Origin: Haloterrigena alkaliphila
GTDB taxonomy: Archaea > Halobacteriota > Halobacteria > Halobacteriales > Natrialbaceae
Assembly (NCBI RefSeq): GCF_017352155.2
Contig: NZ_CP084320.1
Span: 1-64,000, forward strand
DNA: 64,000 bases
Direction: 5' to 3'
Part shown: in pieces, positions 3,805 through 58,974 of the stretch
Layout: every line of letters starts with the position of its first letter
How positions within the stretch are numbered: the stretch's first letter is position 1
Notes under the pieces: model-generated
Told to the model about the DNA's origin: nothing
The model's database searches: none
Seen by the model: the letters and a program-made list of their open reading frames with translations, nothing else
Program-made: the position numbers and the translations under genes

Positions 3805-4574
3805 TGACCCCTCGTAGCGGCGGTGGGGGTAAACCGATTTCGCTCGTCACGATCCGGAATCGATGGGCAGCGTGCCGTCGGCTCCGGGTCACTGTAATAC
3901 GTCGCCACTGGCGACCCGTGAGTCACCGGAGCGGTCGACTCCAGCGGCGACGTTCAGCGTCGGCCGCCCTCGATCGGGGTCGGCGACGCGGTCGGCGTTC
4001 CCGTTGGGCGAGTGCCTCGGTGAGACCGATCGCGGTTATCGTCTTCCTACGGGGGCTTTCGCACCGGTGATAGCGATCATCGCGACACTGACGACTTCCG
4101 TGTACCCACAGTATAACTCGAGAATTCGATCGAGGAGAGTCCACTCGGGGTGGCGAACTCAGCGAGACGAGCACGACGGCCTCGTGCAGCGTGGTACCGT
4201 CCGATTCGACACCGAAACACCACTCGGCTGATCGGCGTCGAACGGCGGATCCGTTCTTCGTGGGCCGAAGCGGAAATGGGGGCGGGCGCTGCTTCGACGG
4301 CCGCAAACTGGGGGTCACAGTCGTCCGTCGGAGCAGGGGGACGTTCAGGGGGAGAGGGTGGGAGATGACCGGATCAGTGGGAGCCCCGTCGTCGTCCAGG
4401 GGTATTGTCCCCGATCGCTCCTTTCGGCCGTCACCTAATAGTGATACGACCGTGTTTTCTGGGTCGGAAAATCCCACCCTACACCGCTCGAACCGGTCCG
4501 GCCGAACGACGGATGGCTACGACCGTTCGCGGTCGCTCCCACAGGTTCTTTGTCGCTTCGCTCGAGGTGCCGAT
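3805..4574. other. 770-bp stretch without a convincing gene
   Basis: Open frames exist on both strands but all are arginine/serine-rich with no recognisable fold. The minus-strand frame at 3923-4477 and the plus-strand extension upstream of 4575 look like chance open frames of GC-rich DNA. No tRNA, repeat or clear palindrome was seen. It must contain the promoter of the helicase (minus) and of the Usp-like gene (plus). Confidence 0.5.
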
Positions 4575-4961
4575 ATGCAGTATCTCGCCGGGACCCGATC
4601 CGTCCACACGACGGCATCGATCTGTGACTATCTCGACGAGCGGACGACGCCCGACGACACCGTCACTGTCGTCGCAACCGCGTCGGCCGACGATCCCACG
4701 GCGCGACGGGATGCCAGGGAAGCGCTCAACGTCGCTTCCGTTCGGTTGACGACCGTCGGCGAGGTCACCACGACGCTCCGCGAGGACACCGAGTTGGCCG
4801 CGGCGCTCCTCGAGGCGGCGCCGGCGGTCGAGGCCGACGAGATCGTGATCACGACCTCGAGCGGTGACGCGGAGCCGTCGTCGACGTCCGAATCGGCCGT
4901 ACACGCCCTTCTCGAGTCGACCTCGATCCCGGTCGTCGTCGTTCCGGTCGCGGAATCGTGA
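4575..4961 (+). CDS. Usp-like (universal stress protein fold) domain protein
   Basis: 128-residue soluble protein beginning MQYLAGTRSV and ending in the strand IPVVVVPVAES, the usual end of Usp-family alpha/beta domains. The internal pattern (TVTVVATA strand, helix DAREAL, EIVITTSSG strand) fits that fold. The nucleotide-binding signature Gly-x2-Gly-x9-Gly-Ser/Thr is not visible; the equivalent stretch after ITTSSGD is acidic and serine-rich. It is therefore probably a non-ATP-binding member or a divergent relative. The frame continues upstream to 4191 with implausible arginine-rich sequence, so the ATG at 4575 is used. It stands alone between divergent neighbours. Confidence 0.6.
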   Translation: MQYLAGTRSVHTTASICDYLDERTTPDDTVTVVATASADDPTARRDAREALNVASVRLTTVGEVTTTLREDTELAAALLEAAPAVEADEIVITTSSGDAEPSSTSESAVHALLESTSIPVVVVPVAES

Positions 4962-5066
4962 GCGGTCTCCCCTCGCGGGTCCGTTCTCCCCCACCGGGAC
5001 GAAACTACCGCATTCCGCGGGGTAGATGACGGCTACTTAATTCGTTGTCACGTGAAATTCCCCTCG

Positions 5067-6242
5067 ATGAGTGACGAGATTCCGTTGTTCGAAATCCCGT
5101 GGGACGAAACCGACGTCTCGAACGCCGTCGAATCGATCACGCGGGGATCCTATTGGGCAAACGGGCCGTACGTCGAGGAGTTCGAGCGCGGACTCGAGGC
5201 GTACCTCGGCGTCGAGCACGCCGTTACCGTCAATTCGGGAACGTCGGCGCTGGTAGCCGCGCTGACGGCCCACGGTATCGGCGAGGGGGACGAGGTAATC
5301 GTTCCCTCGTTTACGTTCATCGCGACGGCCAACGCCGTCCGGCTCGTCGGTGCGCGCCCGGTGTTCGCGGACATCGAACGCGAGACGTACGGATTGGATC
5401 CCGAGAGCGTCAGCGAAACGGTCAGCGACGAGACGGGGGCCATTCTGCCCATTCACCCGTACGGGGCGCCGTGCGAGATCGACGCACTGGCCGAGATCGC
5501 CGACGACGCGGACGTCCCGCTGATCGAAGACGCCGCGGAAGCGTTCGGTGCCGATTACCGCGGTCAAACGCTCGGAACGATCGGTGATTCGGCGGCCCTG
5601 AGCTTCTGTCAGAACAAGATCCTGCCGACCGGCGAGGGCGGCGCCGTCGTCACCGACGACGACGAGGTCGCACGACGCCTCGAGGAGTTCCGCTCGCACG
5701 GCCGCTCCTCGTCGGCGTACTTCGATTCGACGGGCAGCGGAGAGTACGCCAGCGTCGGGACGAACGTCCGGATGTCGGATCTCGTTGCGGCCGTCGGCTG
5801 TGCCCAACTGGAGAAGGTCGAAGATCACATCGAGAATCGACGCCGCGTGGCGGCGCGGCTGTCCGAGGGACTCGGCGACGTCTCCGGCGTCGAACCGCAC
5901 ACTGCCGCCGGTCGCGGTCGCCACGTCTACCAGTTGTATACGGTTACCTTCGACGCAACTATCGACCGAAGCGCCGTTATCGACACCCTAGCCGAGCGGA
6001 ATATCGCGTCGAAAGTCTACTGGGAGCCGGGAGCGCATCTGACGCAGAGCTACCGCGACGAATACGGTTACGAGCCGGGACTGCTTCCCGTTACGGAGGA
6101 GATTACGGGGCGTGTGCTCTCCCTACCGATTCATCCGGATCTTCGAAGCGACGAAATCGACCGTATTACGGCCGGAGTCGAGGCAGGCATCGAACGGGGA
6201 CGATCGATGGAACCCTCGGCGTCGACCGAACCGACGGACTGA
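5067..6242 (+). CDS. DegT/DnrJ/EryC1/StrS-family PLP aminotransferase
   Basis: Sugar aminotransferase of 391 residues. It has the family N-terminus (RGSYWANGPYVEEFE), the PLP phosphate-binding NSGTSALVAAL loop near residue 57, the Asp of IEDAAEAFGA near 155 and the Schiff-base Lys in SFCQNKILPTGEGG near 185. These enzymes move an amino group from glutamate to a keto-sugar nucleotide for glycan or polysaccharide synthesis. The ATG at 5067 is preferred over a GTG at 5052: a TATA-like CTACTTAATT lies at 5033-5042, about 25-30 bp upstream, as for leaderless haloarchaeal genes. The epimerase gene at 6414 follows on the same strand, suggesting a sugar-nucleotide pair. Confidence 0.9.
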   Translation: MSDEIPLFEIPWDETDVSNAVESITRGSYWANGPYVEEFERGLEAYLGVEHAVTVNSGTSALVAALTAHGIGEGDEVIVPSFTFIATANAVRLVGARPVFADIERETYGLDPESVSETVSDETGAILPIHPYGAPCEIDALAEIADDADVPLIEDAAEAFGADYRGQTLGTIGDSAALSFCQNKILPTGEGGAVVTDDDEVARRLEEFRSHGRSSSAYFDSTGSGEYASVGTNVRMSDLVAAVGCAQLEKVEDHIENRRRVAARLSEGLGDVSGVEPHTAAGRGRHVYQLYTVTFDATIDRSAVIDTLAERNIASKVYWEPGAHLTQSYRDEYGYEPGLLPVTEEITGRVLSLPIHPDLRSDEIDRITAGVEAGIERGRSMEPSASTEPTD

Positions 6243-6327: not shown

Positions 6328-6413
6328 GGAGGCCATCCAGACTGAGCGAACAGGCCGCACTACCATCGGTGCGACGCCGGCGGTGCTGCGGCAGTTGGGG
6401 TCAAGACTTACCT

Positions 6414-7898
6414 ATGAGATGGCCAGTCACAGCCGACGCGAGGATGTCGATCCGCGACGCGATCATGCGGATCGAACGATCTGAATCCGGAGGCATCGTT
6501 GTCGTCGACGACGAGCGTCGACTCGTCGGAACCGCGACGACCGGACGACTCAGGCGCAAGCTCCGCGACGGAGTCACGCCGGACACTCCGGTATCGACCG
6601 TCGTCGACGAGGATCCGATCGTCGTCGACGCGAGCGGTTCCGTCCGAACGATCGACGGAACTCCGGACGACCAGAGGGATGCGGGACGCGACGCAGTCGT
6701 CGCACCCGTCGTCGACGAGGACGAAACCGTCGTCGACGTCACGACCGTCGAGTTGACCGACGGGGTCCCACGCGAAATCGATTCGGAATCCAACGGTGTC
6801 GAGACGGAATCAAACGGCGTCGAAACGGTACTCGTCGTCGGCGGGGCGGGCTATCTCGGCTCGGTACTGTGCCGGCAACTCCTCTCGGAGGGCTTCGCCG
6901 TCCGCGTTCTCGATCCGCTGATGTACGGTAACGCCGGAGTATCAGATCTCACTGACGACGACCGGTTTACCCTGCTTCGAGGCGACGCGCGATCCGTCGA
7001 GAACGTCGTCGAAGCCATCGACGGCGTCGACGCCGTCGTCCACCTCGGTGGGATCGTCGGTGATCCCGCCTCCGAGATCGATCCCGAGAAGACGCTCGAG
7101 TACAACCTTCACTCGACGCAGCTGCTGGCGACGATCTGTAAGTACCACGGGATCAATCGATTCGTCTTCGCCTCGACCTGTAGCGTCTACGGGCGATCCG
7201 AGGACGGTAGCGGACGGCTTTCGGAAGAGGATGCGCGCAATCCCGTCTCGCTGTACGCTCGCCTGAAGATCCAGTCCGAACGGGTTCTTCGCGACCTCGC
7301 CGACGACTGTTTCGCGCCGACGATCCTCCGAATGGCGACGGTCTACGGGCAGTCGCCGCGGATGCGGTTCGATCTCGTCGGGAACATTCTCCCGGCCAAG
7401 GCCCACGTGGAGGGCGTCGTTCCCGTCTTCGGCGGCGACCAGTACCGGCCGAACGTCCACGTCGCTGACGCCGCTCGCGCTTACGTCGAGTGTCTGACCG
7501 CGCCCATCGAGGACGTCGGAGACACCGTCTTCAACGTCGGTTCGAACCGGCAGAACTACCGGATCGACGAACTCGCGACCATCGTCGAGGACTGTTTCCC
7601 CGACGCCTCGATCGAGTATCACGAAGAGAAGACGGACGAGCGGAGCTACCGCGTCGAGTTCGAGAAGATCCAGTCCGTGCTTGGCTTCGAACCCCAGCGA
7701 ACGGTTCGAGACCACTGTCTCGAGCTGAAGGAGGCGTTCGAAGCGGGACGGTACAGCGACTACACCGCGACTCGCTACAACAACTACAAGACGCTCGATC
7801 GCGCCCCGAGCTACGAAGACACGACCGCCGTCCTCGAACCTCGCGATCAGGCGGTCGCCGTCCAGCCCCGCGAGAAACTCACCTCCAAAGAGGTCTAG
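6414..7898 (+). CDS. CBS-like domain fused to NAD-dependent sugar epimerase/dehydratase
   Basis: A 494-residue two-part protein. Residues ~1-125 form a tandem CBS-like module (SIRDAIMRIERSESGGIVVV, RRLVGTATTGRLRRKL, then a second shorter unit DAVVAPVVDEDE), of the kind usually attached to sugar nucleotidyltransferases. After a short acidic linker with repeated SNGVET, residues ~143-494 are an extended SDR epimerase: Rossmann motif GGAGYLG, SVYGR, the catalytic Tyr-x3-Lys as YARLK, and the downstream RMATVYG. The SDR half would act on a nucleotide sugar with NAD(P). The CBS part could sense a nucleotide or sugar nucleotide. ATG at 6414 is chosen over GTG 6369. It lies 171 bp after the DegT aminotransferase. 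Confidence 0.88.
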   Translation: MRWPVTADARMSIRDAIMRIERSESGGIVVVDDERRLVGTATTGRLRRKLRDGVTPDTPVSTVVDEDPIVVDASGSVRTIDGTPDDQRDAGRDAVVAPVVDEDETVVDVTTVELTDGVPREIDSESNGVETESNGVETVLVVGGAGYLGSVLCRQLLSEGFAVRVLDPLMYGNAGVSDLTDDDRFTLLRGDARSVENVVEAIDGVDAVVHLGGIVGDPASEIDPEKTLEYNLHSTQLLATICKYHGINRFVFASTCSVYGRSEDGSGRLSEEDARNPVSLYARLKIQSERVLRDLADDCFAPTILRMATVYGQSPRMRFDLVGNILPAKAHVEGVVPVFGGDQYRPNVHVADAARAYVECLTAPIEDVGDTVFNVGSNRQNYRIDELATIVEDCFPDASIEYHEEKTDERSYRVEFEKIQSVLGFEPQRTVRDHCLELKEAFEAGRYSDYTATRYNNYKTLDRAPSYEDTTAVLEPRDQAVAVQPREKLTSKEV

Positions 7899-9063: not shown

Positions 9064-9096
9064 GCAGCGTGAGCGATATTATTTTTACGTGTGCAT

Positions 9097-9113
9097 GTAG
9101 TACTGTGTACTAC
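9097..9113. promoter_or_regulatory. Operator palindrome over the vapBC transcription start
   Basis: GTAGTAC-TGT-GTACTAC is a perfect palindrome ending one base before the VapB ATG (9115). The TATA-like element at 9077-9087 predicts a start near 9108-9115, so a protein bound here would block a leaderless transcript. Autoregulation by VapB or the VapBC complex is the usual arrangement and is inferred. Confidence 0.65.
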
Positions 9114-9114
9114 G

Positions 9115-9375
9115 ATGGCGACGAAAACGATTTCACTCGACGAAGAAGCCTATGAGCGGCTAAAGGCCCGAAAAAAAGAGGGAGAAAGCTTCAGTGAAAC
9201 CGTCAAGCGCCTTGCTGGAGAACGCTCGTGGAACGAGGTTGTAGGACTCCTCTCCGAGGACGAGGCGGCAGACCTCGAGGCCGCTATCGAGGAGGGACGA
9301 ACGACGTCCAGAGAGCGGAGTGATCGACTCACAGCGGCGTTAGACGAAGCCGTAGACGACGAGACGTCGGAATGA
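9115..9375 (+). CDS. vapB: VapB-type antitoxin (cassette 1)
   Basis: 86-residue antitoxin. The N-terminus MATKTISLDEEAYERLKARK is the dimerising DNA-binding strand-helix of archaeal VapB proteins, followed by SFSETVKRL. The acidic C-terminal half should wrap the toxin active site. The ATG at 9115 directly follows the palindromic operator and suits a leaderless transcript; an upstream in-frame GTG at 9091 would place coding sequence across the operator. The last codons overlap the toxin start (ATGA), a sign of coupled translation. The module lies between repeats R1 and R2. Confidence 0.87.
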   Translation: MATKTISLDEEAYERLKARKKEGESFSETVKRLAGERSWNEVVGLLSEDEAADLEAAIEEGRTTSRERSDRLTAALDEAVDDETSE

Positions 9376-9764
9376 TTCAGGACACGTCGTTCATTATCGA
9401 CTTATTACGTGGCGATGAAAATGCAAAGCGACTTCTCGATATCGTCGAAAAAGAAGCACGACCACAAAAAGTGTCCTCCGTGACGGTTTTGGAACTTTAC
9501 GAGGGCGTTGCTCGGTCTCAAACACCGGAGACGAAGCGAGAGCGAATTCTCGAGATACTAGAAACGAAGCACGTCGTGAGTGCCGACCACACCGTAATGC
9601 GAAAAGCCGGAAAGCTCTCCGGTGAGCTACTCAATGGCAGCGAACGGATTGAGCGAGAAGATTGTATTATCGCCGCAACTGCGCTTCTCAACGACGAACC
9701 GGTTATCACGAGAAATACCAAGCACTTCGGGCGTATCGACGGCCTCGAAGTACGGTCTTACTAA
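9372..9764 (+). CDS. vapC: VapC PIN-domain ribonuclease toxin (cassette 1)
   Basis: 130-residue PIN-domain protein. Acidic metal-binding residues expected of the fold are visible: Asp in MIQDTSFIIDLL, Glu in VTVLELYEG, Asp in REDCIIAATAL, and the terminal N/D region in VITRNTKHFGRI. VapC toxins cleave RNA, often tRNA or rRNA, when their antitoxin is lost. It overlaps vapB by four bases. Its stop is only 19 bp from repeat R2, so the cassette is compact on its right side. Confidence 0.9.
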   Translation: MIQDTSFIIDLLRGDENAKRLLDIVEKEARPQKVSSVTVLELYEGVARSQTPETKRERILEILETKHVVSADHTVMRKAGKLSGELLNGSERIEREDCIIAATALLNDEPVITRNTKHFGRIDGLEVRSY

Positions 9765-9783
9765 GGCTTGATTGCGTGAGAGA

Positions 9784-9834
9784 CTACCTACTTTCACGCT
9801 GCTCGACCTTGTTCAGATAGATAATATCCAATAT
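9784..9834 (-). repeat. R2: copy of chorismate mutase 3' end
   Basis: On the minus strand it reads IYLNKVEQRESR and TAG. The 18-mer GCTGCTCGACCTTGTTCA at 9798-9815 is identical in R2-R5. I count 31 of 39 bases matching R5. Beyond the shared codons it continues into a segment resembling the same position in R3 and R4 (GATAATATCCAATAT versus GATGAAATCCACCAT). Confidence 0.85.
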
Positions 9835-9849
9835 GCGAACTACTGAAAC

Positions 9850-9870
9850 ACTGATGGTAGTACCATCAGT
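9850..9870. promoter_or_regulatory. 21-bp palindromic operator of cassette 2
   Basis: ACTGATGGTA-G-TACCATCAGT is a perfect palindrome 49 bp upstream of the AbrB-type antitoxin start (9919). Only a half site (GGTACCATCAG, 10643-10653) remains at the equivalent place in cassette 3. Confidence 0.6.
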
Positions 9871-9918
9871 CTCCTGCTGGTGGTAAGATTCTTTGCCTAT
9901 GGCACTATAGTCATATCT

Positions 9919-10164
9919 ATGTCAGCAGAAACGGACGGACAGGGGAGGCTGTACATCCCCAAAGACGTACGAGAAAAGTACGGCGAAAAGTACCACATCG
10001 TCACGTACGAGGACAGAATTGAACTCGTTCCGGTTGCAGACGACCCGCTCGCTGCAGTCCGCGAAGCGGCAGGCGAGTTACGTGACGCGTCCGTCGATGA
10101 TATTCGCGCGGACATCGAAGCAGAAGCGAAAACTGAGGCCCGCGAGAACGGGGACGATAGATGA
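9919..10164 (+). CDS. AbrB/MazE-type antitoxin (cassette 2)
   Basis: 81-residue antitoxin with an N-terminal swapped-hairpin DNA-binding segment (GQGRLYIPKDVREKYG, then YHIVTYEDRIELVPV) and an acidic helical tail (EAAGELRDASVDDIRADIEA). This AbrB/SpoVT architecture neutralises PIN toxins in many archaea. ATG at 9919 gives the conserved N-terminus shared with the paralogue at 10703; the frame continues upstream to 9880 without similarity. It overlaps the toxin gene by four bases. The palindrome at 9850-9870 is the probable autoregulatory site. Confidence 0.85.
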   Translation: MSAETDGQGRLYIPKDVREKYGEKYHIVTYEDRIELVPVADDPLAAVREAAGELRDASVDDIRADIEAEAKTEARENGDDR

Positions 10165-10544
10165 CGGTCTACGTCGAAACCGACTTTCTACTCGCACTCG
10201 CCAAAGACTCGGACTGGTTGCAGCAATCAGCAGAGGAGGCACTCGACGAGTACGACGTAGAAACGTCGGCCTTCTCCTATCTCGAACTCCTTCTCGCCCG
10301 AGAACGGTACGAGTTCGATTACGTCCCACTCGTGGCAAACTTGCTCGAACTCGTCCCTGTCCGAGACGAGGAAGAACGACAAATCGTTCTGAAGGCCGTC
10401 AACTACTACGACGAGGGAATGACGGCGTTCGATGCGTTCCACGCAGCGACTGCGGAAACACGTACGCTGAACGTGCTCTCATCGGAGAAAGACTATGAGA
10501 ACATCGAGGTGGAACGAGTCCCGCTAGAACCGGCTGATGAATGA
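10161..10544 (+). CDS. PIN-domain toxin (cassette 2)
   Basis: 127-residue PIN-domain protein. It begins MTVYVETDFLLALAKD (first Asp), has Glu in SYLELLLARERYE, Asp in FDAFHAATAE and Asp in LSSEKDYENI, giving the acidic cluster of the family. Probably an endoribonuclease held in check by the preceding antitoxin, whose stop overlaps its start. By eye it is about 90% identical to the toxin of cassette 3 (10945-11331). It ends 23 bp before repeat R3. Confidence 0.87.
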   Translation: MTVYVETDFLLALAKDSDWLQQSAEEALDEYDVETSAFSYLELLLARERYEFDYVPLVANLLELVPVRDEEERQIVLKAVNYYDEGMTAFDAFHAATAETRTLNVLSSEKDYENIEVERVPLEPADE

Positions 10545-10567
10545 CGTAGCAATATCTCCGTCGCGTG

Positions 10568-10618
10568 CTACCGATTCTCGCGCTGCTCGACCTTGTTCAA
10601 ATAGATGAAATCCACCAT
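10568..10618 (-). repeat. R3: copy of chorismate mutase 3' end
   Basis: On the minus strand it reads IYLNKVEQRENR and TAG; 33 of 39 bases match R5. The 18-base core is at 10582-10599. It extends through GATGAAATCCACCAT, which is identical in R4 but absent from the resident gene. That extension makes a 16-residue frame starting with ATG, probably fortuitous. Confidence 0.85.
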
Positions 10619-10702
10619 ACACACTATTGAAACGTTTTGTTGGGTACCATCAGCCACACGCTAGTGGTAAGACTCTTTGTCCATGGTAACCTAGTCGAAT
10701 CT

Positions 10703-10948
10703 ATGTCAGCAGAGACGGATGGACAGGGACGGCTGTACATCCCAAAGGAGGTGCGCGAGAAGTACGGCCAGAAGTATCACATCGTCATGTACGAGGACAG
10801 AATCGAGTTGATTCCGGTCGCCGACGACCCACTCGCCGCTGTCCGCGAAGCGGCAGGCGAACTTCACGATGCATCAGTCGAGGAAATTCGAGAGGACATC
10901 GAGGCGGAGGCGAAAGACGAGGCTGAGGAAGCCGGCGGCGATAGATGA
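10703..10948 (+). CDS. AbrB/MazE-type antitoxin (cassette 3)
   Basis: Paralogue of the cassette 2 antitoxin, 81 residues, with the same swapped-hairpin start (MSAETDGQGRLYIPKEVREK) and acidic tail. About a dozen substitutions, several in the toxin-binding tail (RDASVDD versus HDASVEE), could separate its partner specificity from the first copy. The ATG at 10703 is fixed by alignment with the paralogue. Only half of the palindromic operator of cassette 2 is retained upstream (10643-10653), so its regulation may differ. It overlaps the toxin gene by four bases. Confidence 0.85.
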   Translation: MSAETDGQGRLYIPKEVREKYGQKYHIVMYEDRIELIPVADDPLAAVREAAGELHDASVEEIREDIEAEAKDEAEEAGGDR

Positions 10949-11331
10949 CGGTGTACGTCGAGACGGATTTCCTGCTCGCACTCGCCAAAGACACTGATTG
11001 GTTGCAGGGCTCCGCTGAGGACGCCCTCGGCGAGTACGACGTCGAAACGTCACCGTTCTCGTATCTCGAACTCCTCCTCGCCCGAGAACGCTACGAGTTC
11101 GACTACGTTCCGCTGGTGGCGAACCTGCTCGAACTCGTCCCTGTGCGGAACGAGGAAGAGAAACAAGTAGTTCTGAAAGCCGTCAACTACTACGACGAGG
11201 GAATGACGCCGTTCGACGCCTTCCACGCGGCGACTGCGGAAACGCGGGGAATGGACGTACTCTCCTCTGAGAAGGACTACGAAAATATCGAGGTAGAACG
11301 AGTCCCACTCGAACCGACCGACGAGGAATGA
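10945..11331 (+). CDS. PIN-domain toxin (cassette 3)
   Basis: 128-residue PIN-domain protein, close paralogue of 10161-10544, with the same acidic residues (VETDFLLALAKD, YLELLLARERYE, FDAFHAATAE, LSSEKDYE). Changes cluster around residues 17-37, 69-75 and 90-103. The codons differ at many third positions, so the two copies are not a recent duplication. Its stop is followed by 191 bp before repeat R4, and that gap holds a fragment of a plus-strand gene tail. Confidence 0.87.
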   Translation: MTVYVETDFLLALAKDTDWLQGSAEDALGEYDVETSPFSYLELLLARERYEFDYVPLVANLLELVPVRNEEEKQVVLKAVNYYDEGMTPFDAFHAATAETRGMDVLSSEKDYENIEVERVPLEPTDEE

Positions 11332-11399
11332 CTCCGGACGGAGGATATAGTCCCAGCAGAACGAAGCGTGGTACTCGTAGTGGTTGTCGTGGCGCGTGT

Positions 11400-11445
11400 G
11401 CAACAGACTTGCGTCGAATCTTCCGGCTGCTCATCAAGTCTGAGA
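11400..11445 (+). pseudogene. Fragment of a plus-strand gene tail, copy A
   Basis: Translated with one frame change it gives a segment like RRIFRLLIKSE, matching VFRVLIDSE at the end of the fragment at 12424-12534. The bases TCTTCCGG-TGCTCATC are shared at 11419-11435 and 12506-12522 (one mismatch). The two sit 104 and 105 bp before R4 and R5 respectively. This suggests both repeats carried the same flanking sequence. Short, so chance is possible. Confidence 0.4.
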
Positions 11446-11522
11446 TCTCGTATGGTGGCGTCGAGAATCGACCTCGCCTCACTAATACGTAGTTAGAAGA
11501 TCTGTAACAGCCGTCCGTACGC

Positions 11523-11573
11523 CTACCGACTCTCCCGCTGCTCGACCTTGTTCAGTTCGATGAAATCCACCAT
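11523..11573 (-). repeat. R4: copy of chorismate mutase 3' end
   Basis: On the minus strand it reads IELNKVEQRESR and TAG; 35 of 39 bases match R5, making it the closest copy to the resident gene. The 18-base core is at 11537-11554. It shares the extra GATGAAATCCACCAT with R3 and then diverges. Confidence 0.88.
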
Positions 11574-11650
11574 GGATTCTCGCGAAAACAACGTCTGATC
11601 ACAAAATCATCCTGTCGAATATAGGGTTTAGCGTCCTTCACTAGGCGACA

Positions 11651-11658
11651 TATATAAA
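11651..11658. promoter_or_regulatory. Strong TATA-like box behind the cassette 4 toxin
   Basis: TATATAAA lies 39-46 bp beyond the stop of the minus-strand PIN toxin. On the plus strand it could drive a transcript starting near 11680 that is antisense to the toxin. It could also work leftward. No gene start fits it. Confidence 0.3.
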
Positions 11659-11696
11659 CGAAACTGCCGAGGCCTATAATTGTTAGTATCGGTCGG

Positions 11697-12113
11697 TTAG
11701 CGCGTGTCGAACGAGTCGATCACGTCGGTCGTCGAATGGGTCTCGACGATATCTTGCTCATCGAAGTCGGTGTCGTCGCTCCAGATGTCCGCGTCACTGG
11801 CGAGGGCACACGCGACGTACAGCACATCGTCGGGATCAGTCTCACCGATCGCCGCGTTGGCCTCCTTGATATAGGGATAGAACTTGCTGGCGGGGACGAC
11901 CTCAATATACTGAAACAGGAGGTCAATGAACTGCGCGACTCGATCCGGGTGCATCCCAGATTTATCGACGATCAACTCCGTGTAGTTCTCGATTTCGTCG
12001 TGGACGAACTCGGGTGTCACGAGATCTGGTTCGAGCGTAACGATGAGTTCGCGGGTTTTCGAGTCGGCGATGAGCGCTGAGATGACGACATTGGCGTCGA
12101 TAACCAACTTCAT
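11697..12113 (-). CDS. PIN-domain toxin (cassette 4, inverted)
   Basis: 138-residue PIN-domain protein. Asp in LVIDANVVISALI, Glu in FVHDEIENYTEL, the Asp pair in GETDPDDVLYVACAL and Asp in ADIWSDDTDFD give the expected metal-binding set. It is of the single-domain type paired with ribbon-helix-helix antitoxins and is not similar to the toxins of cassettes 1-3. It lies 9 bp after the antitoxin gene on the minus strand, opposite to the other three modules, and is bounded by R4 and R5. Confidence 0.87.
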   Translation of the reverse strand: MKLVIDANVVISALIADSKTRELIVTLEPDLVTPEFVHDEIENYTELIVDKSGMHPDRVAQFIDLLFQYIEVVPASKFYPYIKEANAAIGETDPDDVLYVACALASDADIWSDDTDFDEQDIVETHSTTDVIDSFDTR

Positions 12114-12122
12114 TCGTCGGGA

Positions 12123-12353
12123 CTACTCCAAATCCTCTTCGACGCGGTCGCGTGCGCTCTCGTTGACCTTGTTGGCTATTTCTGCGACGTCGCTCTCGGT
12201 GAGTTCGCTTCCGGATGTGAGCTCGTCCATCACTTCGAGTGTCTCGATTTTCTCTTGGATCGCCTGGCGGGTGACCTCGCTCCAGTTGATTTCCGGATGT
12301 CTCTCCATCCGATCTTTGAGATCGTCGTCGACATTGACGGTGATACTGGGCAT
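12123..12353 (-). CDS. Ribbon-helix-helix antitoxin (cassette 4)
   Basis: 76-residue protein starting MPSITVNVDDDLKDRMERHP, a canonical ribbon-helix-helix strand and first helix, then INWSEVTRQAIQEKIETLE. The acidic C-terminus (ESDVAEIANKVNESARDRVEEDLE) should bind the toxin. The ATG at 12353 is used; the frame runs on to 12401, but this would cover the operator palindrome at 12368-12387. The downstream PIN toxin follows after 9 bp. Confidence 0.85.
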   Translation of the reverse strand: MPSITVNVDDDLKDRMERHPEINWSEVTRQAIQEKIETLEVMDELTSGSELTESDVAEIANKVNESARDRVEEDLE

Positions 12354-12367
12354 ACAGAAAACTATGT

Positions 12368-12387
12368 AGACACAGAATCTTGTGTCT
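12368..12387. promoter_or_regulatory. Operator palindrome of cassette 4
   Basis: AGACACA and TGTGTCT form perfect 7-bp arms around a 6-bp spacer, 15-34 bp upstream of the RHH antitoxin start. A further GAGACACAG occurs near 12395. This is the expected place for RHH autoregulation. Confidence 0.55.
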
Positions 12388-12423
12388 TTGGATGGAGACA
12401 CAGCAGCAAGAACTGACCGCTAG

Positions 12424-12649: not shown

Positions 12650-12931
12650 CAACAGCCTGAAAATCGCCTTCACGAGGTTCGCGTCGACGTCGAACTGCTC
12701 CGCGTTGGCGCCGGCCCGATCCATCACCTGCTGTTCCTGCTTCTCGTCGGTCGTCGGGAGCCCCCGCTCTGCTTTGACCTGCGCGATCGTGTCGGCGACG
12801 TAGGTCCGCTGGGCGATCAGTTCGACGATCTCCTGGTCGATCGTCTCGATCTCCTCGCGCAGTTCGTCGAGGCTCATGTCGTCCGGCGTGCGGTCCCCTC
12901 CGTCCGTGGCTGTGTCGGATGTGCGAGTCAT
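12611..12931 (-). CDS. Chorismate mutase, AroQ type
   Basis: All-helical chorismate mutase of 106 residues, converting chorismate to prephenate for phenylalanine and tyrosine synthesis. Visible family features: SLDELREEIETIDQEIVELI, the Arg of AQRTYVADTIAQVK, ERGLPTTDEKQEQ and the C-terminal helix LVKAIFRLLIELNK. The first ~15 residues are an acidic haloarchaeal extension. Its start overlaps the shikimate kinase stop by four bases (ATGA), so the two aromatic-pathway genes form an operon. The final 13 codons (12611-12649) are the R5 sequence repeated at R1-R4, making this 3' end the apparent target of the cassette array. Confidence 0.92.
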   Translation of the reverse strand: MTRTSDTATDGGDRTPDDMSLDELREEIETIDQEIVELIAQRTYVADTIAQVKAERGLPTTDEKQEQQVMDRAGANAEQFDVDANLVKAIFRLLIELNKVEQRENR

Positions 12932-13800
12932 GTCACTTGTGTCCCGTCCGTTCGCGTCTGCAGTAATCGTGTCGTTCCGTCGCGTTCGTCCCAGCGCTCG
13001 CGGACCGCCTCGAGCGTCGATCGCTCGCCGACCGCGACGTAGCTCGGCCCCGTTCCCGACAGCGAGACGCCGGTGACGTCGGGCAGGACGTCGATCATCG
13101 GCCCCGTCGGAAACTCGAGGGCGCCGCAGAAGGCGAAGCCGTTGACGGTCATGGCTTCGCCGTAGCGGCCGTCGAGAGCCAGTTCCGCGACGAGATCCGC
13201 CATCGGCGCGATCCGCTCGCAGGCCGAGACGTCGGCGTCGGCGCTGAAGGACTGGTCGGGCGGCGTATAAACCAGCGCGTCCCAGTCGATCTCCTCGCGG
13301 GCGAGCAGGTCGTCGGTCGCGTTGTCGGTGACCGTCACGCCGCCGAGCATGCTCGCGCTCGCGTCGTCGAAGGCGCCGGTGACGGTGACGCCGGCGTCAC
13401 GAGCCGCGCGAACCCCCAGCCGACAGGCGTCGATCCGGTCGACCGCGTCGGCGATCTCGAGCGCGTCGAGCGTCGCGAGCACGGTCGCGTTCGCCGCGGC
13501 GCTGGAACTCTTCAGGCCCGAGGCCATCGGGACCTCGCTGTCGGTCCGGACGCGGGCGCCCACGGCCGACCGGTCCAGTCCGGCGTCCGCGGCGTGTTCG
13601 GCGATCGTCAGCGCGGTACAGCGCTCGACCAGCGTCGTATCGGCGTCGGGCCGGTCGGCGATCTCGGCTCCGATTTCGCCGTCGCTGGTGAGTTCGACGG
13701 TGGCTGTCGTCTCGAGGTCGATCGCGAACGCCGATCCGGTTCCGGTCGCGAGCGCGTTGAGAACCGTTCCGGCGGCGGGTGCGACGGCGCGGCCGTCCAT
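12928..13800 (-). CDS. Archaeal shikimate kinase (GHMP superfamily)
   Basis: GHMP-fold kinase of 290 residues that phosphorylates shikimate in the chorismate pathway. The ATP-binding GHMP signature appears as EVPMASGLKSSSAAANA near residue 91, and the C-terminal GVSLSGTGPSYVAVG matches the family's third motif. It is of the archaeal type, unrelated to bacterial AroK. The ATG at 13800 (MDGRAVAPAAGTV) is preferred to a GTG two codons upstream. The stop overlaps the chorismate mutase ATG. Genes for the other pathway steps are not in the window. Confidence 0.92.
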   Translation of the reverse strand: MDGRAVAPAAGTVLNALATGTGSAFAIDLETTATVELTSDGEIGAEIADRPDADTTLVERCTALTIAEHAADAGLDRSAVGARVRTDSEVPMASGLKSSSAAANATVLATLDALEIADAVDRIDACRLGVRAARDAGVTVTGAFDDASASMLGGVTVTDNATDDLLAREEIDWDALVYTPPDQSFSADADVSACERIAPMADLVAELALDGRYGEAMTVNGFAFCGALEFPTGPMIDVLPDVTGVSLSGTGPSYVAVGERSTLEAVRERWDERDGTTRLLQTRTDGTQVT

Positions 13801-13921
13801 GGTCACACTCTCTCAGACCGCGTACTTACGGCTGACGATCCGCGCAACGTGAGGGGGATAGCGGCGGGTTCAGACGCCGAGAACGCACTCTTTTTCCACG
13901 ATCCGCACGAACCGACGCCCA

Positions 13922-54678: not shown

Positions 54679-55257
54679 GTGAGCGAGTTCGTCTCCGGCG
54701 CCGACTGCACGGTCGACGAGGGAGCCACCGTCGGCTACGGCGAGTTCGACGAGCCGACACGAGTCGGCGACGGCGCGACGATCAGAGCCGGATCGATCGT
54801 CTACGGCGACGTGACGATCGGCGACGAGCTGACGACGGGCCACGACGTCCTGATCCGGGAAGGGACGACGATGGGTGACGACGTCCTCGTCGGAACCAAG
54901 ACCGTCATCGACGGCCAGACGACGATCGGTTCGCACGTCAGTCTCCAGACGAACGTCTACATTCCGACCGAGACGACGATCGGGGATAACGTCTTCATCG
55001 GGCCGAGCGCGGCGTTGACCAACGACGAGTACCCGATCAGGACGGACACCGGCCTCGAGGGGCCGACGATCGAGGACGGCGCCTCCGTCGGCGCGAACGC
55101 GACGCTGCTGCCCGGCGTCACCGTCGGCGAGAACGCCTTCGTCGCGGCCGGTGCGGTCGTGACGGAGGACGTCCCGCCGGACACGCTCGCCGTCGGCACG
55201 CCGGCGACGGTCCAGACGCTTCCGAAACCGCTCGAGGGTGCAAATCAGATCGCATGA
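54679..55257 (+). CDS. Left-handed beta-helix N-acetyltransferase (WbpD-like)
   Basis: 192-residue hexapeptide-repeat protein (repeats such as VGDGATIRAG, IGDELTTGHDV, IGDNVFIGPSA) ending VVTEDVPPDTLAVGTPATVQT, as in UDP-2-acetamido-3-amino-glucuronate N-acetyltransferases. It would acetylate the 3-amino group made by the next gene product. Start is GTG at 54679. First gene of an operon whose five genes overlap by 4-8 bases. Confidence 0.87.
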   Translation: MSEFVSGADCTVDEGATVGYGEFDEPTRVGDGATIRAGSIVYGDVTIGDELTTGHDVLIREGTTMGDDVLVGTKTVIDGQTTIGSHVSLQTNVYIPTETTIGDNVFIGPSAALTNDEYPIRTDTGLEGPTIEDGASVGANATLLPGVTVGENAFVAAGAVVTEDVPPDTLAVGTPATVQTLPKPLEGANQIA

Positions 55258-56480
55258 CGGACCCGAATCCCGATACCGAGCGGAGTAGCGACGCCGAACC
55301 GGTCGCCGAACCCGACGGCGGGGTCGCCGAGGCCGATCAGTCGGGCGACGGGGCCACCGACGAACCGGCGAGTGGCGGCGTCTCGATCGCCGATCCCGAA
55401 CTCAGCGACGACGCGACGGATCGCGTTCAGTCGGTCCTCGAGAGCGGGATGCTCGCCGACGGTCCCGAGGTACGGGAATTCGAGGCGGCGTTCGCCGCCT
55501 ACTGCGGGACCGAGCGGGCCGTCGCGACGTCCAACGGGACGACCGCCCTCCACGCCGCACTCGAGGCGCTGGGTCTCGAGGAGGGCGACGCGGTCGTGAC
55601 GTCGCCGTTCTCGTTCGTCGCGAGCGCCAACGCCATCAGGCTCGCCGGCGGCAAACCCGTCTTCGCCGACGTCGATCCGGAGACGTACACGATCGATCCG
55701 GACGCGGTCGAACGCGTCCTCGAGGAACGCGACGACGTCGTCGGCCTGCTCCCGGTCCACCTCTACGGACTGCCGGCGGAGATGGACCGCCTCTCGACGA
55801 TCGCCGACGAGCACGACCTGTTCGTCCTCGAGGACGCCTGTCAGGCCCACGGCGCGGCGATCGACGGCGATCGGGTCGGCGGCTTCGGCGACGCCGCCTG
55901 CTTCTCGTTCTACCCGACGAAGAACATGACGACCGGCGAGGGCGGGATCGTCACCACCGACCGCGACGACGTCGCCGATCGGGTTGCGAGTTTCATCAAC
56001 CACGGTCGGGACGTCGGCGAGGGCGGCACGTACGAGCACGTCGCGCTCGGGCACAACTACCGGATGACGAGCATGGCCGCCGCCATCGGCCGGGCCCAAC
56101 TCGAGCGCCTGCCCGATTTCAACCGGGCGCGCCGGGAGAACGCGGCCTACTACGACGAGGAACTCGCGGACCTGCCGGTGGAGACGCCGACGGAACCCGA
56201 GGGCTACCGCCACGTCTACCACCAGTACACGATCCGGACCGACGACCGGGAGGCGCTGGCGGCGACGCTCGAGGACCGCGGCGTCGACACCGGCGTCTAC
56301 TACGAGACGCCGATTCACCGCCAGCCGGCATACGAGACGGTGAGTACGGCGGCGGCGTCGCTGCCGAACGCGGAACGGGCGGCCGAGACGGTCCTCTCGC
56401 TGCCCGTCCACCCGAACCTCACGGAGCGGGACCGACGAACCGTCGTCGAAGCAGTGCAGGACCACTTCAACTCCACATGA
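55254..56480 (+). CDS. DegT/DnrJ/EryC1/StrS aminotransferase (WbpE-like)
   Basis: 408-residue PLP enzyme. After a ~45-residue acidic tail comes the domain: MLADGPEVREFEAAFAAYCG, SNGTTALHAALEAL, LEDACQAHGA and the Schiff-base Lys in SFYPTKNMTTGEGG near residue 223. Expected to place an amino group at C3 of a UDP-3-keto-GlcNAcA. It starts within the stop of the acetyltransferase and overlaps the oxidoreductase by four bases. Confidence 0.9.
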   Translation: MTDPNPDTERSSDAEPVAEPDGGVAEADQSGDGATDEPASGGVSIADPELSDDATDRVQSVLESGMLADGPEVREFEAAFAAYCGTERAVATSNGTTALHAALEALGLEEGDAVVTSPFSFVASANAIRLAGGKPVFADVDPETYTIDPDAVERVLEERDDVVGLLPVHLYGLPAEMDRLSTIADEHDLFVLEDACQAHGAAIDGDRVGGFGDAACFSFYPTKNMTTGEGGIVTTDRDDVADRVASFINHGRDVGEGGTYEHVALGHNYRMTSMAAAIGRAQLERLPDFNRARRENAAYYDEELADLPVETPTEPEGYRHVYHQYTIRTDDREALAATLEDRGVDTGVYYETPIHRQPAYETVSTAAASLPNAERAAETVLSLPVHPNLTERDRRTVVEAVQDHFNST

Positions 56481-57454
56481 CCCAGACACAACGGATCCGG
56501 GCCGGCGTCATCGGCGTCGGTTCCATGGGCGAGAACCACGCGCGCGTGTACAGTGAATTACGAGATGTCGAACTCGCGGGCATCAGCGACCGCGACGAGA
56601 CGGTCGCACGGCGAGTCGCCGACGAGTACGAAACCGAACCCGTCGAGTTCGATCGGCTCCTCGATCGGTGCGACGTCGTCACCGTCGCCGTGCCGACGCC
56701 GGTACACGAGGACGTGGTAACGGACTGCCTCGATGCGGGCGTCCACGTCCTCGTCGAGAAGCCGATCGCCGAGACGGTCGAGCAGGGACGGGCGATGGCC
56801 GAGCGAGCGCGGGCGAACGATCTCGTCTTGCAGGTCGGCCACATCGAGCGGTTCAACCCGGCCGTGCGAACGGTCACCGACCTGATCGACGACCTGGACG
56901 TCATCAGCGTCGAGGCCGAACGGCTGGGCCCGCCGATCGACCGATCGACTGGCGACGTCGTCTCGGACCTGATGGTCCACGACATCGACATCGTCGGCTC
57001 GATGCTCGACGCCCAGCCCGACACCGTGACCGCGATGGGCACCGAGAACGGCCAGTACGCGACGGCGACGATGAAGTACGGCGACGTCGTCGCGTCGTTG
57101 ACCGCGAGCCGGGTCACCCAGAAGAAGGTCCGGAAGCTGACCGTCACGGCCCGGGAGTGTCTCGTCGAGGTCGACTACCTCGAGCAGTCCGTGCTGATCC
57201 ACCGCGACTCCTACCCGGAGTACCTCACGGACGACGGCCAGAACCGGTACCGCCACGAGAGCGTCGTCGAACGGCCCCGCGTCGACAACGGGGAGCCGCT
57301 GCGCCACGAACTCGAGGCGTTCGTCGAGGCCGCCCGTACCGGGTCGGAGCCGGTCGTCACCGCCGAGGACGGCATCGAGGCCCTCGAGACGGTGCAGACG
57401 ATCGGTGCGCTGATCGACGACGAAAATCGAAAACGGGAGGTGGAGGCCCGATGA
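56477..57454 (+). CDS. Gfo/Idh/MocA-family sugar-nucleotide dehydrogenase (WbpB-like)
   Basis: 325-residue NAD(P)-dependent oxidoreductase. Rossmann motif GVIGVGSMGENHARVYSEL near residue 10, the EKP motif in VLVEKPIAET near 96 and the catalytic His/Asp region DLMVHDIDIVGSML near 165. In the pathway it would oxidise UDP-GlcNAcA at C3. Four-base overlaps with both neighbours. Confidence 0.9.
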   Translation: MTQTQRIRAGVIGVGSMGENHARVYSELRDVELAGISDRDETVARRVADEYETEPVEFDRLLDRCDVVTVAVPTPVHEDVVTDCLDAGVHVLVEKPIAETVEQGRAMAERARANDLVLQVGHIERFNPAVRTVTDLIDDLDVISVEAERLGPPIDRSTGDVVSDLMVHDIDIVGSMLDAQPDTVTAMGTENGQYATATMKYGDVVASLTASRVTQKKVRKLTVTARECLVEVDYLEQSVLIHRDSYPEYLTDDGQNRYRHESVVERPRVDNGEPLRHELEAFVEAARTGSEPVVTAEDGIEALETVQTIGALIDDENRKREVEAR

Positions 57455-58974
57455 GCGGCGATTCTACATCTAGCGGCGGCCTCTACGGCTCGAGCGAGTC
57501 GCCGGCGCGCCAGCGCGAACGGCTCACCGGCGGCGAGATTCCGGTCGCCGTCTACGGCCTCGGGAAGATGGGGCTGCCGCTGGCGAGCGTCTACGCGGAG
57601 ACGACCGGCAACGTCACCGGCGTCGACATCGATCCCGACGTGGTCGACGGGATCAACGCCGGCGAGAACCACGTCGTCGGCGAACCGGGACTCGACGACC
57701 TCGTCGCCGAGCAGGTCGATCAGGGTCGCCTCGAGGCGACGACCGACGGCGCCGAGGCGGCCGGGAACGCCCGCGTCCACGTCGTCATCGTACCGACGCT
57801 GCTGGACGAGGAGAACCAGCCGGATCTGACGACGGTCGAGTCGGTGATCGACGATATCGCGGCCGGGCTCGAGCCCGGCGATCTGGTCATCGCCGAGTCG
57901 ACGCTCCCGCCGACGAGCTGTCGGGACGTCATCCAGCCCCATCTGGAGCAGGAGAGCGGACTCGAGGCCGACGAGTTCGGCCTCGCCTTCTGTCCGGAAC
58001 GGACGTCCAGCGGCCGCGCGCTGCAGGACATCCGCGGCGCGTATCCGAAGGTCGTCGGCGGCGTCGACGACGAGAGCACGCGGGCCGCGTCGATCGTCTA
58101 CGACGAGATTTCCGACAACGATGTCCACCCGGTCTCGGACGCCACGACCGCAGAGGCGGTCAAGGTGTTCGAGGGCGTCTACCGGGACGTCAACATCGGG
58201 CTGGCGAACGAACTGGGGCGACTCGCGGACGAACTCGACATCTCGGTCCGCGAGGCGATGGACACGGCCAACGACCTGCCGATGTGTCAGCTCCACGACC
58301 CCGGTCCGGGCGTCGGCGGCCACTGCATCCCCTACTACCCGCACTTCCTGCTCTCGCAGAACGAGGAGCCGATGGACCTGACCCGGACCGCCCGGCGGGT
58401 CAACGACGAGATGCCGACGGTCGTCGTCGAGCGCCTCGAGCGGGAGCTGGCGGCGACCGAGGACGACCCCACGATCGACGCCGCCACCGACCTCGCCGAC
58501 GCCTCGGTGGTCGTCCTCGGGATCACCTACCGGCCCGGCGTCGAGGAGACGCGGGCCTCGCCCGCGCTCGGCGTCATCGACGAGTTGAACGACCGCGGTG
58601 CCGACGTCGCGGGCGTCGACCCGCTCGTCGACCCGGCCGAGTACGGCGCTCGAGCGGTCGAGATGGGCGAGCTCACCGACGAGTCGTTCGACGCCGCGGT
58701 GATCGTCACGCCCCACGAGCAGTTCGACGAGATTCCGTGGACCGACCTCGAGCCGATGGTCGTCGTCGACGGCCGGGACGCGGTCGATCTCTCGGCGACC
58801 GCCCACCGGCAGTACACGCTCGCGGGGTCGGCGAGCGGTCGACCGCCGACCGGCGAGAGCGCAGGTGACGCGGTCACGGCGGACGAACAGTCGCTGACCG
58901 CAGATGGCGGGGTCGACGACGGCCCGCCGACGGCCGGAGCCGACCCCACGACCGGCGGGGGTGACGATGTATAA
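57451..58974 (+). CDS. UDP-N-acetyl-hexosamine 6-dehydrogenase (WbpA/WecC-like)
   Basis: 507-residue nucleotide-sugar dehydrogenase. NAD site VAVYGLGKMGLPLASVYAE near residue 32; substrate domain with AEAVKVFEGVYRDVNIGLANEL; the catalytic Cys in GVGGHCIPYYPHF near 291; C-terminal UDP-binding domain with GITYRPGVEETRASPA. Oxidises the C6 hydroxyl to a carboxylate, giving UDP-GlcNAcA or ManNAcA. A ~45-residue acidic Gly/Asp tail is added. It overlaps the next gene by eight bases. Confidence 0.92.
   Translation: MSGDSTSSGGLYGSSESPARQRERLTGGEIPVAVYGLGKMGLPLASVYAETTGNVTGVDIDPDVVDGINAGENHVVGEPGLDDLVAEQVDQGRLEATTDGAEAAGNARVHVVIVPTLLDEENQPDLTTVESVIDDIAAGLEPGDLVIAESTLPPTSCRDVIQPHLEQESGLEADEFGLAFCPERTSSGRALQDIRGAYPKVVGGVDDESTRAASIVYDEISDNDVHPVSDATTAEAVKVFEGVYRDVNIGLANELGRLADELDISVREAMDTANDLPMCQLHDPGPGVGGHCIPYYPHFLLSQNEEPMDLTRTARRVNDEMPTVVVERLERELAATEDDPTIDAATDLADASVVVLGITYRPGVEETRASPALGVIDELNDRGADVAGVDPLVDPAEYGARAVEMGELTDESFDAAVIVTPHEQFDEIPWTDLEPMVVVDGRDAVDLSATAHRQYTLAGSASGRPPTGESAGDAVTADEQSLTADGGVDDGPPTAGADPTTGGGDDV

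What the first reader, a model, noticed from the sequence alone, without database searches (positions are those of the whole stretch)
6414..7898. CBS-like sensor module fused to a sugar epimerase
The first ~125 residues look like the CBS pair normally attached to sugar nucleotidyltransferases, but the catalytic part is an SDR epimerase (GGAGYLG, YARLK). The linker is a repeated SNGVET. A regulatory domain on an epimerase would give feedback control in the sugar pathway started by the DegT aminotransferase upstream.
Basis: partly seen in the sequence, partly recalled or inferred. Interest (0 to 1): 0.5.

Follow-up and report, generated by a model that had tools for sequence, protein, structure and literature searches.

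The report
Sugar dehydrogenase with eroded CBS sensor
A salt-loving archaeon carries a sugar-modifying enzyme with a sensor-type domain fused to its front; relatives with an intact sensor occur mostly in genomes that make sialic-acid-like sugars, while in this lineage that pathway is missing and the sensor has decayed.

Summary
The fusion is real. ORF 6414-7898 encodes a CBS-type N-terminal domain and an extended SDR; it recurs in 27 relatives from the window's family and in 23 of the 80 best loci of a genome-contig scan. Two points change. (1) The SDR's nearest solved relative is Cj1427, a GDP-heptose C4-dehydrogenase, and a DegT gene lies within 1 kb in 62 of 80 loci: C4 oxidation followed by amination fits better than epimerisation. 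(2) In 26 of 26 rows of the window's clade the ribose-binding Asp of CBS1 is Arg or Gln, and CBS2 is near-neutral, so adenine-nucleotide control is unlikely. Intact modules track nonulosonic-acid synthesis: of 20 haloarchaeal genomes found with the fusion, 8 of 8 with the intact motif have NeuB 1.2-17.2 kb away, 0 of 12 with the eroded motif have NeuB. Best reading: the module is a sensor from nonulosonate pathways, perhaps for the CMP-sugar end product, and largely a relic here. Ligand and substrate are unproven; the association is not significant after phylogenetic correction.

The parts
6414..7898 (+). CBS-SDR fusion gene (494 aa plus stop)
6414..6578 (+). CBS1 (residues 1-55), predicted beta-alpha-beta-beta-alpha (E6-8 H13-23 E27-31 E36-42 H43-51)
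   Evidence: pN/pS about 0.5 over residues 1-72
6528..6548 (+). eroded ligand motif GTATTGR (residues 39-45); the 8 haloarchaeal relatives with NeuB have GxxTDGD
6609..6776 (+). degenerate CBS2 (about residues 66-121); no helices in the model; partly deleted in 9 of 26 rows
6786..6827 (+). tandem 21-bp duplication encoding ESNGVET-ESNGVET in the linker
6825..7751 (+). extended SDR domain (residues 138-446), Cj1427-like
6840..6860 (+). NAD-binding GGAGYLG (residues 143-149)
7173..7193 (+). active-site STCSVYG (residues 254-260); S257 stands where 4,6-dehydratases carry Glu (dehydratase motif recalled)
   Evidence: invariant in the 23 rows of A3 except T255; Cj1427 has TNSGYG there
7254..7268 (+). 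catalytic YARLK (residues 281-285)
5052..6242 (+). DegT/DnrJ/EryC1 sugar aminotransferase, conserved partner directly upstream

Best explanation
The gene encodes a NAD-dependent sugar-nucleotide C4-oxidising SDR (Cj1427-like) that hands a 4-keto sugar to the DegT aminotransferase upstream, giving a 4-amino sugar nucleotide. Its N-terminal CBS module comes from an older, widespread fusion found in genomes and clusters for nonulosonic-acid (sialic-acid-like) synthesis, where it probably senses a pathway metabolite, most simply the CMP-nonulosonate end product, and throttles an early step. In the window's lineage no NeuB was found; the DegT-SDR pair is kept, while the module has lost its ribose-binding Asp and most of CBS2. 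It is probably no longer a nucleotide sensor, and CBS1 survives as a structural or oligomerisation element. Shown by computation: the fusion, its spread, the motif loss, relaxed constraint on CBS2, DegT linkage and the co-occurrence with NeuB. Inferred: the reaction, substrate, ligand, direction of regulation and order of losses.
For: SDR: best solved match Cj1427 by profile (E 3.7e-75, next best 1.1e-47) and by fold (target TM 0.91-0.95); Cj1427 oxidises GDP-heptose at C4 and holds NADH tightly (PMC10680097, passages). The dehydratase Glu position is Ser in 23 of 23 rows of A3. DegT within 1 kb in 62 of 80 loci and beside the fusion in 19 of 20 family regions. CBS module: 12 of 26 CBS-containing loci have NeuB in the fetched flanks against 0 of 54 others (BLAST over 60 bits; Fisher 1.6e-7, uncorrected). 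Strong NeuB at genome or locus level in 22 of 24 CBS cases outside the eroded clade against 2 of 16 non-CBS genomes tested (Fisher 5e-7). Sample of 392 haloarchaeal genomes: 8 of 8 genomes with the TDGD motif have NeuB on the same contig, 1.2-17.2 kb away; 0 of 12 with the eroded motif have NeuB (Fisher 8e-6); NeuB overall in 72 of 392. In the L077 genome a second CBS module sits on a nucleotidyltransferase in another cluster with NeuB and NeuA-, NeuD- and DegT-like genes (L219). Decay: Asp/Asn kept in 0 of 26; pN/pS CBS1 0.52, CBS2 with linker 0.89, SDR 0.30 over 325 pairs; 0.49, 0.90, 0.18 over 28 close pairs.
Against: The association is not independent of descent: the SDR tree gives 1-2 independent pairs on starred branches (4-5 on all branches), too few for significance, and the eroded proteins form one clade, so their 0 of 12 is about one event. 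The genome-level contrast depends on a bit-score cut of about 150 chosen after seeing the scores: at E 0.001, 13 of 16 non-CBS and 13 of 14 CBS genomes have a match. L050 and L071 have CBS fusions but no strong NeuB. The three membrane-CBS-SDR proteins come from NeuB genomes, yet the motif scan did not find the standard motif in them, and L071 and L077 lack its T/S. NeuD-like genes are commoner beside membrane-SDR loci (8 of 51) than beside CBS-only loci (1 of 23). CBS1 is still under some constraint (pN/pS about 0.5), against a pure relic. Profile A5 does not single out the isomerase CBS pairs: MJ0922, ST2348 and MJ1225 rank above them. No ligand, substrate or activity was measured.
Confidence: 0.5

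Rival explanations
1. The CBS module of the window protein is still a sensor, with a changed ligand: R45 replaces the ribose-binding Asp and two CBS1 domains pair across a homodimer.
For: CBS1 is folded in the model (mean pLDDT 82-93 in the blocks of residues 11-60) and constrained (pN/pS about 0.5); the replacement is Arg in 24 of 26 rows and Gln in 2, which random decay would hardly give.
Against: CBS2 with linker is near-neutral and CBS2 is partly deleted in 9 of 26 rows (17-26 of 49 positions filled); no ligand data.
Confidence: 0.2
2. The N-domain never sensed a nucleotide: it is an oligomerisation or localisation module, the soluble counterpart of the membrane domain that many relatives carry in the same place.
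For: 51 of the 80 loci carry a hydrophobic, membrane-type N-domain instead and 3 carry membrane + CBS + SDR (hydropathy and profile); these 3 lack the standard motif in the scan.
Against: In the 12 rows of A5, chosen for clear CBS pairs, D44, G45, I47 and R48 are invariant and G40, T43, D46 at 90% or more, which points to ligand binding; the last motif position is D or N in 21 of 21 CBS-only loci outside Natronococcus, though L071 and L077 lack the T/S.
Confidence: 0.2
3. The SDR is a plain UDP-sugar 4-epimerase, and DegT linkage reflects general sugar clustering.
For: Epimerase family match and fold similarity to UDP-GlcNAc C4-epimerases (6wjb rank 5); GalE is the top NCBIfam match (121 bits).
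Against: GalE score is far under its cut-off of 262; Cj1427 is clearly closer; DegT is the neighbour across many phyla and in family regions where 5 of 5 other neighbours scanned are not recognised sugar genes.
Confidence: 0.2
4. The SDR is a LegB-type 4,6-dehydratase in a legionaminic-acid pathway.
For: LegC, LegB and the other Leg genes are reported for Halorubrum sp. PV6, LegC and LegB with successive locus numbers (PMC6137143, passages); CBS-SDR clusters carry NeuB, NeuC and NeuA-like genes.
Against: LegB model 70 bits against a cut-off of 475 for the window and 99 for L042; the Glu of dehydratases (recalled) is Ser; no NeuB in the window's genome.
Confidence: 0.1

Closest known systems
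Cj1427, GDP-D-glycero-D-manno-heptose C4-dehydrogenase (6vo6/6vo8)
   Same: SDR core: best profile and fold match; shared SPRMR-DL-VN and S-x-YG stretches
   Different: No CBS module on the solved chain of 321 aa; substrate of the window enzyme unknown
CBS-sugar nucleotidyltransferases (L184/L219; PtmE recalled)
   Same: Same kind of CBS pair at the N-terminus (85 bits with A5), in a cluster with NeuB and NeuA-, NeuD- and DegT-like genes
   Different: Catalytic domain is NTP_transferase, not an SDR
KdsD/KpsF/GutQ arabinose-5-phosphate isomerases (SIS + CBS pair)
   Same: CBS pair on an early enzyme of an ulosonic-acid pathway; L042 residues 7-115 match kpsF, E 3e-14. That their CBS pairs were solved with CMP-Kdo is recalled, not seen here
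   Different: CBS is C-terminal and the catalytic domain unrelated
LegB/LegC of Halorubrum sp. PV6 (PMC6137143, passages seen)
   Same: SDR and aminotransferase genes in a haloarchaeal nonulosonate pathway
   Different: The passages found mention no CBS module; annotated there as a 4,6-dehydratase

Membership tests
CBS domain (PF00571) | profile match over the curated cut-off | tested here: inconclusive
   27.1 bits in the genome search, 21.2 bits on the ORF from 6414 (cut-off 24); homology to intact CBS modules E 1.3e-16
CBS domain (PF00571) | beta1-alpha1-beta2-beta3-alpha2 fold | tested here: met
   secondary structure of the model, residues 6-51, against the order given in PMC6429129 (passages); no structural superposition was made
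Bateman module (CBS pair) | two complete CBS repeats | tested here: not met
   CBS2 has no helices in the window model; the L042 relative has CBS2 helices 78-86 and 88-91
Adenosyl-binding CBS site | G h h' T/S X X D/N motif | tested here: not met
   GTATTGR in the window; D/N in 0 of 26 rows of its clade; motif from PMC6429129 (passages); tested for CBS1 only
Extended SDR | glycine-rich NAD motif and YxxxK | tested here: met
   GGAGYLG and YARLK
GalE UDP-glucose 4-epimerase | NCBIfam equivalog cut-off | tested here: not met
   121 bits against 262
LegB 4,6-dehydratase | NCBIfam cut-off | tested here: not met
   70 bits against 475
Cj1427-type C4-dehydrogenase | C4 oxidation with recycling of bound NADH by alpha-ketoglutarate | not testable with these tools
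   only sequence and fold similarity
Nonulosonic-acid pathway enzyme | NeuB-family synthase in the genome | tested here: not met
   no PF03102 match in the window's genome and NeuC model under its cut-off (54.8 of 235.9 bits); NeuB present in 8 of 8 sampled haloarchaeal genomes with the intact motif

The most novel reading that the evidence does not exclude
CBS modules on early enzymes of ulosonic-acid pathways (here CBS-SDR and CBS-nucleotidyltransferase; KdsD by recall) form one functional class: end-product sensors for CMP-nonulosonates. Because the SDR lacks the dehydratase Glu, the intact pathways would make a 5,7-diamino nonulosonic acid that keeps its 9-hydroxyl, and the window's lineage is a natural loss-of-sensor experiment: pathway gone, sensor eroded, enzyme pair kept.
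Probability: 0.25. Interest if true: 0.65.

Novelty: new variant of a known kind. Interest (0 to 1): 0.48.

Why it matters
What the CBS pairs on sugar-activating enzymes sense could not be found in the papers searched here. The link between intact modules and sialic-acid-like sugar synthesis names a ligand class to test (CMP-nonulosonates against adenine nucleotides), and the window's lineage offers an eroded protein as a natural control.

Tried and rejected
Rejected: a frameshift or two-gene artefact (28 of 28 rows lie in one open frame); the GTG start at 6369 (ATG 6414 is the conserved start); CBS-nucleotidyltransferases as neighbours of CBS-SDR genes (profile A5 found no other CBS protein among the ORFs in the fetched flanks of the 80 loci). 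Five neighbours scanned from three family regions are a GTPase, a glyoxalase-like protein, a Na/H antiporter, an integrase and a 674-aa protein without a match.

Led nowhere: Foldseek on the full window model showed only SDRs among the 50 rows listed, so the N-domain was not compared with CBS structures by fold. Independent-pairs test underpowered. In 34 genomes only 2 listed matches to the CBS-nucleotidyltransferase covered its CBS part (L184/L227 and L228), and the contig of L228 held no NeuB match. Paper searches without hits: CBS domain with epimerase, fused and haloarchaea (11); with nucleotidyltransferase and legionaminic acid (20); with sugar nucleotidyltransferase and archaea (25); with nonulosonic (71); with sialic acid and feedback inhibition (82). 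PtmE, CBS domain, guanylyltransferase gave 4 listings, none on this topic by title (26). CMP-Kdo with CBS domain gave no paper holding both (64); passages of PMC10448790 name the CBS domains of KdsD but no ligand (73).

Corrected on checking: the ORF map hid the DegT gene of G015 (L137) and the fusion of L120 behind rival ORFs; tblastn shows DegT in 19 of 20 regions, missing only in L138, whose fusion gene is itself truncated.

Rows dropped: A1 holds 25 of 28 rows (L013, L016, L025 left out). A3/A4 leave out L046 (X residues). A5 uses 12 of the 23 CBS-only loci, chosen for clear CBS pairs. pN/pS leaves out L020 (unknown bases) and L036 (intact outlier) and uses Nei-Gojobori proportions only. 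Genome-level NeuB was read as present above about 150 bits, a cut chosen after seeing the scores; weaker hits, mostly over profile positions 53-239, were taken as related synthases. Of the 22 positive CBS cases 8 rest on locus evidence alone, and 16 of 54 non-CBS genomes were tested. The haloarchaeal search used the L041 CBS domain at E 1e-8, which misses eroded fusions such as those of G025 and G027.

Full report
Observation. The N-terminal domain is CBS-related: Pfam is borderline (21.2 or 27.1 bits against a cut-off of 24), but a profile of 12 intact N-domains from distant fusions finds it at E 1.3e-16, and that profile in turn finds 45 distinct solved sequences, many named as CBS proteins. 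In the AlphaFold model (23 sequences, mean pLDDT 85) CBS1 has the beta-alpha-beta-beta-alpha order, while CBS2 has strands only and a stretch below pLDDT 50; the Thermoplasmata relative L042 keeps CBS2 helices.

Distribution. In the family sample of 125 genomes, 27 relatives align over the CBS part within one open frame; one more (L037) is truncated to part of the SDR. The clade is called Natrialbaceae here because two named Natronococcus loci fall in it; the window's own name is not given. A scan of genome contigs kept the best 80 of 582 relatives: by hydropathy and profile 51 have a membrane-type N-domain, 23 a CBS N-domain, 3 both, 3 neither. CBS fusions come from Thermoplasmata, Woesearchaeota, Desulfurococcales, Helarchaeota, Diapherotrites and others, and from several bacterial groups. 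On the SDR tree (92 rows, quick method, many forks open) the labels are strongly clustered (8 changes against 33.8 shuffled); CBS-type proteins fall mostly in one 41-row group that is only weakly supported, L077 lies outside it on a long branch, and the haloarchaeal fusions form a starred clade of 14 with the eroded proteins a starred clade of 12 inside it.

Catalytic part. The nearest solved protein is Cj1427 by sequence profile and fold. It is a C4-dehydrogenase with tightly bound NADH recycled by alpha-ketoglutarate (PMC10680097, passages). GalE and LegB models stay far under their cut-offs. The position of the dehydratase Glu (recalled) is Ser. A DegT gene lies within 1 kb in 62 of 80 loci (16 of 23 CBS-only, 46 of 57 others; either strand) and beside the fusion in 19 of 20 family regions. 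C4 oxidation followed by amination is an inference from this.

What the module goes with. Several intact fusions sit among nonulosonate genes: L042 has NeuB and NeuC over their NCBIfam cut-offs (442 and 424 bits) and L046 a NeuD over its cut-off, while the NeuA-like proteins of L044 and L052 match PseF under its cut-off. NeuB lies in the fetched flanks of 12 of 26 CBS-containing loci and 0 of 54 others; NeuC-like genes in 9 of 23 CBS-only and 2 of 51 membrane loci; NeuD-like genes go the other way, 1 of 23 and 8 of 51. At genome or locus level strong NeuB is present in 22 of 24 CBS cases outside the eroded clade (12 of 14; L041 and L042; 8 by locus) and in 2 of 16 non-CBS genomes tested; without the bit-score cut the figures are 13 of 14 and 13 of 16. 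In 392 haloarchaeal genomes, 20 match the L041 CBS domain at E 1e-8; the 8 with TDGD have NeuB on the same contig in 8 of 8, the 12 eroded ones in 0 of 12 (background 72 of 392). Eighteen genomes of the eroded clade, the window's included, have no NeuB match. Six haloarchaeal regions read closely (L220-L225) each hold NeuB, and five of them a DegT directly beside the fusion, 56-66% identical to the window's. In the L077 genome a CBS-nucleotidyltransferase sits in a second cluster with NeuB (Pfam) and NeuA-, NeuD- and DegT-like genes (BLAST). So the module seems to follow the pathway rather than one catalytic domain; for the second enzyme this rests on one genome.

Erosion here. The published ribose-binding motif is G h h' T/S X X D/N (PMC6429129, passages). 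Its last position is D or N in 21 of 21 CBS-only loci outside Natronococcus (20 D, 1 N; T/S missing in L071 and L077), was not found in the 3 membrane-CBS proteins, and is D/N in 0 of 26 rows of the window's clade (24 Arg, 2 Gln). Constraint falls from SDR (pN/pS 0.30) to CBS1 (0.52) to CBS2 with linker (0.89), and likewise in 28 close pairs (0.18, 0.49, 0.90).

Limits. The co-occurrence is confounded by descent. The ligand idea draws on recalled CMP-Kdo structures of isomerase CBS pairs that no call confirmed; the solved isomerase CBS chains appear by name only. No paper on CBS-SDR fusions turned up in the searches listed under Tried and rejected, which cover only open-licence papers.

Noticed in passing
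window 54679-60031 (+): A second sugar cluster: hexapeptide acyltransferase, a DegT aminotransferase (42% identical to the first) and a family 2 glycosyltransferase.
   Followed up: partly
L092, L109, L117: Triple architecture membrane domain + CBS + SDR in Zixibacteria/FCB genomes; the motif scan found no standard CBS1 motif in them.
   Followed up: partly
L185:814-2850: Nucleotidyltransferase + CBS + GHMP kinase in one protein in a Pacearchaeote, about 17 kb from a CBS-SDR gene on the same contig.
   Followed up: partly
L138 (G055): A truncated relative without CBS part and without a DegT match in the 16-kb region, perhaps a decaying copy.
   Followed up: partly
window 9091-12401: Several small two-gene pairs, two of them near-duplicates, that read like toxin-antitoxin (PIN-type) pairs; judged by eye only.
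   Followed up: no
window 4191-4961 (+): An ORF with a weak Usp match (16 bits, under the cut-off of 24) stands upstream of the DegT gene, and related ORFs do so in most of the 20 family regions.
   Followed up: partly
window 1-64000: The window is part of a 161.7-kb contig beside a 3.8-Mb one; it has a ParA-like ORF near its start (by eye) and a GHMP kinase-like gene at 12928-13806, so it may be a secondary replicon.
   Followed up: no
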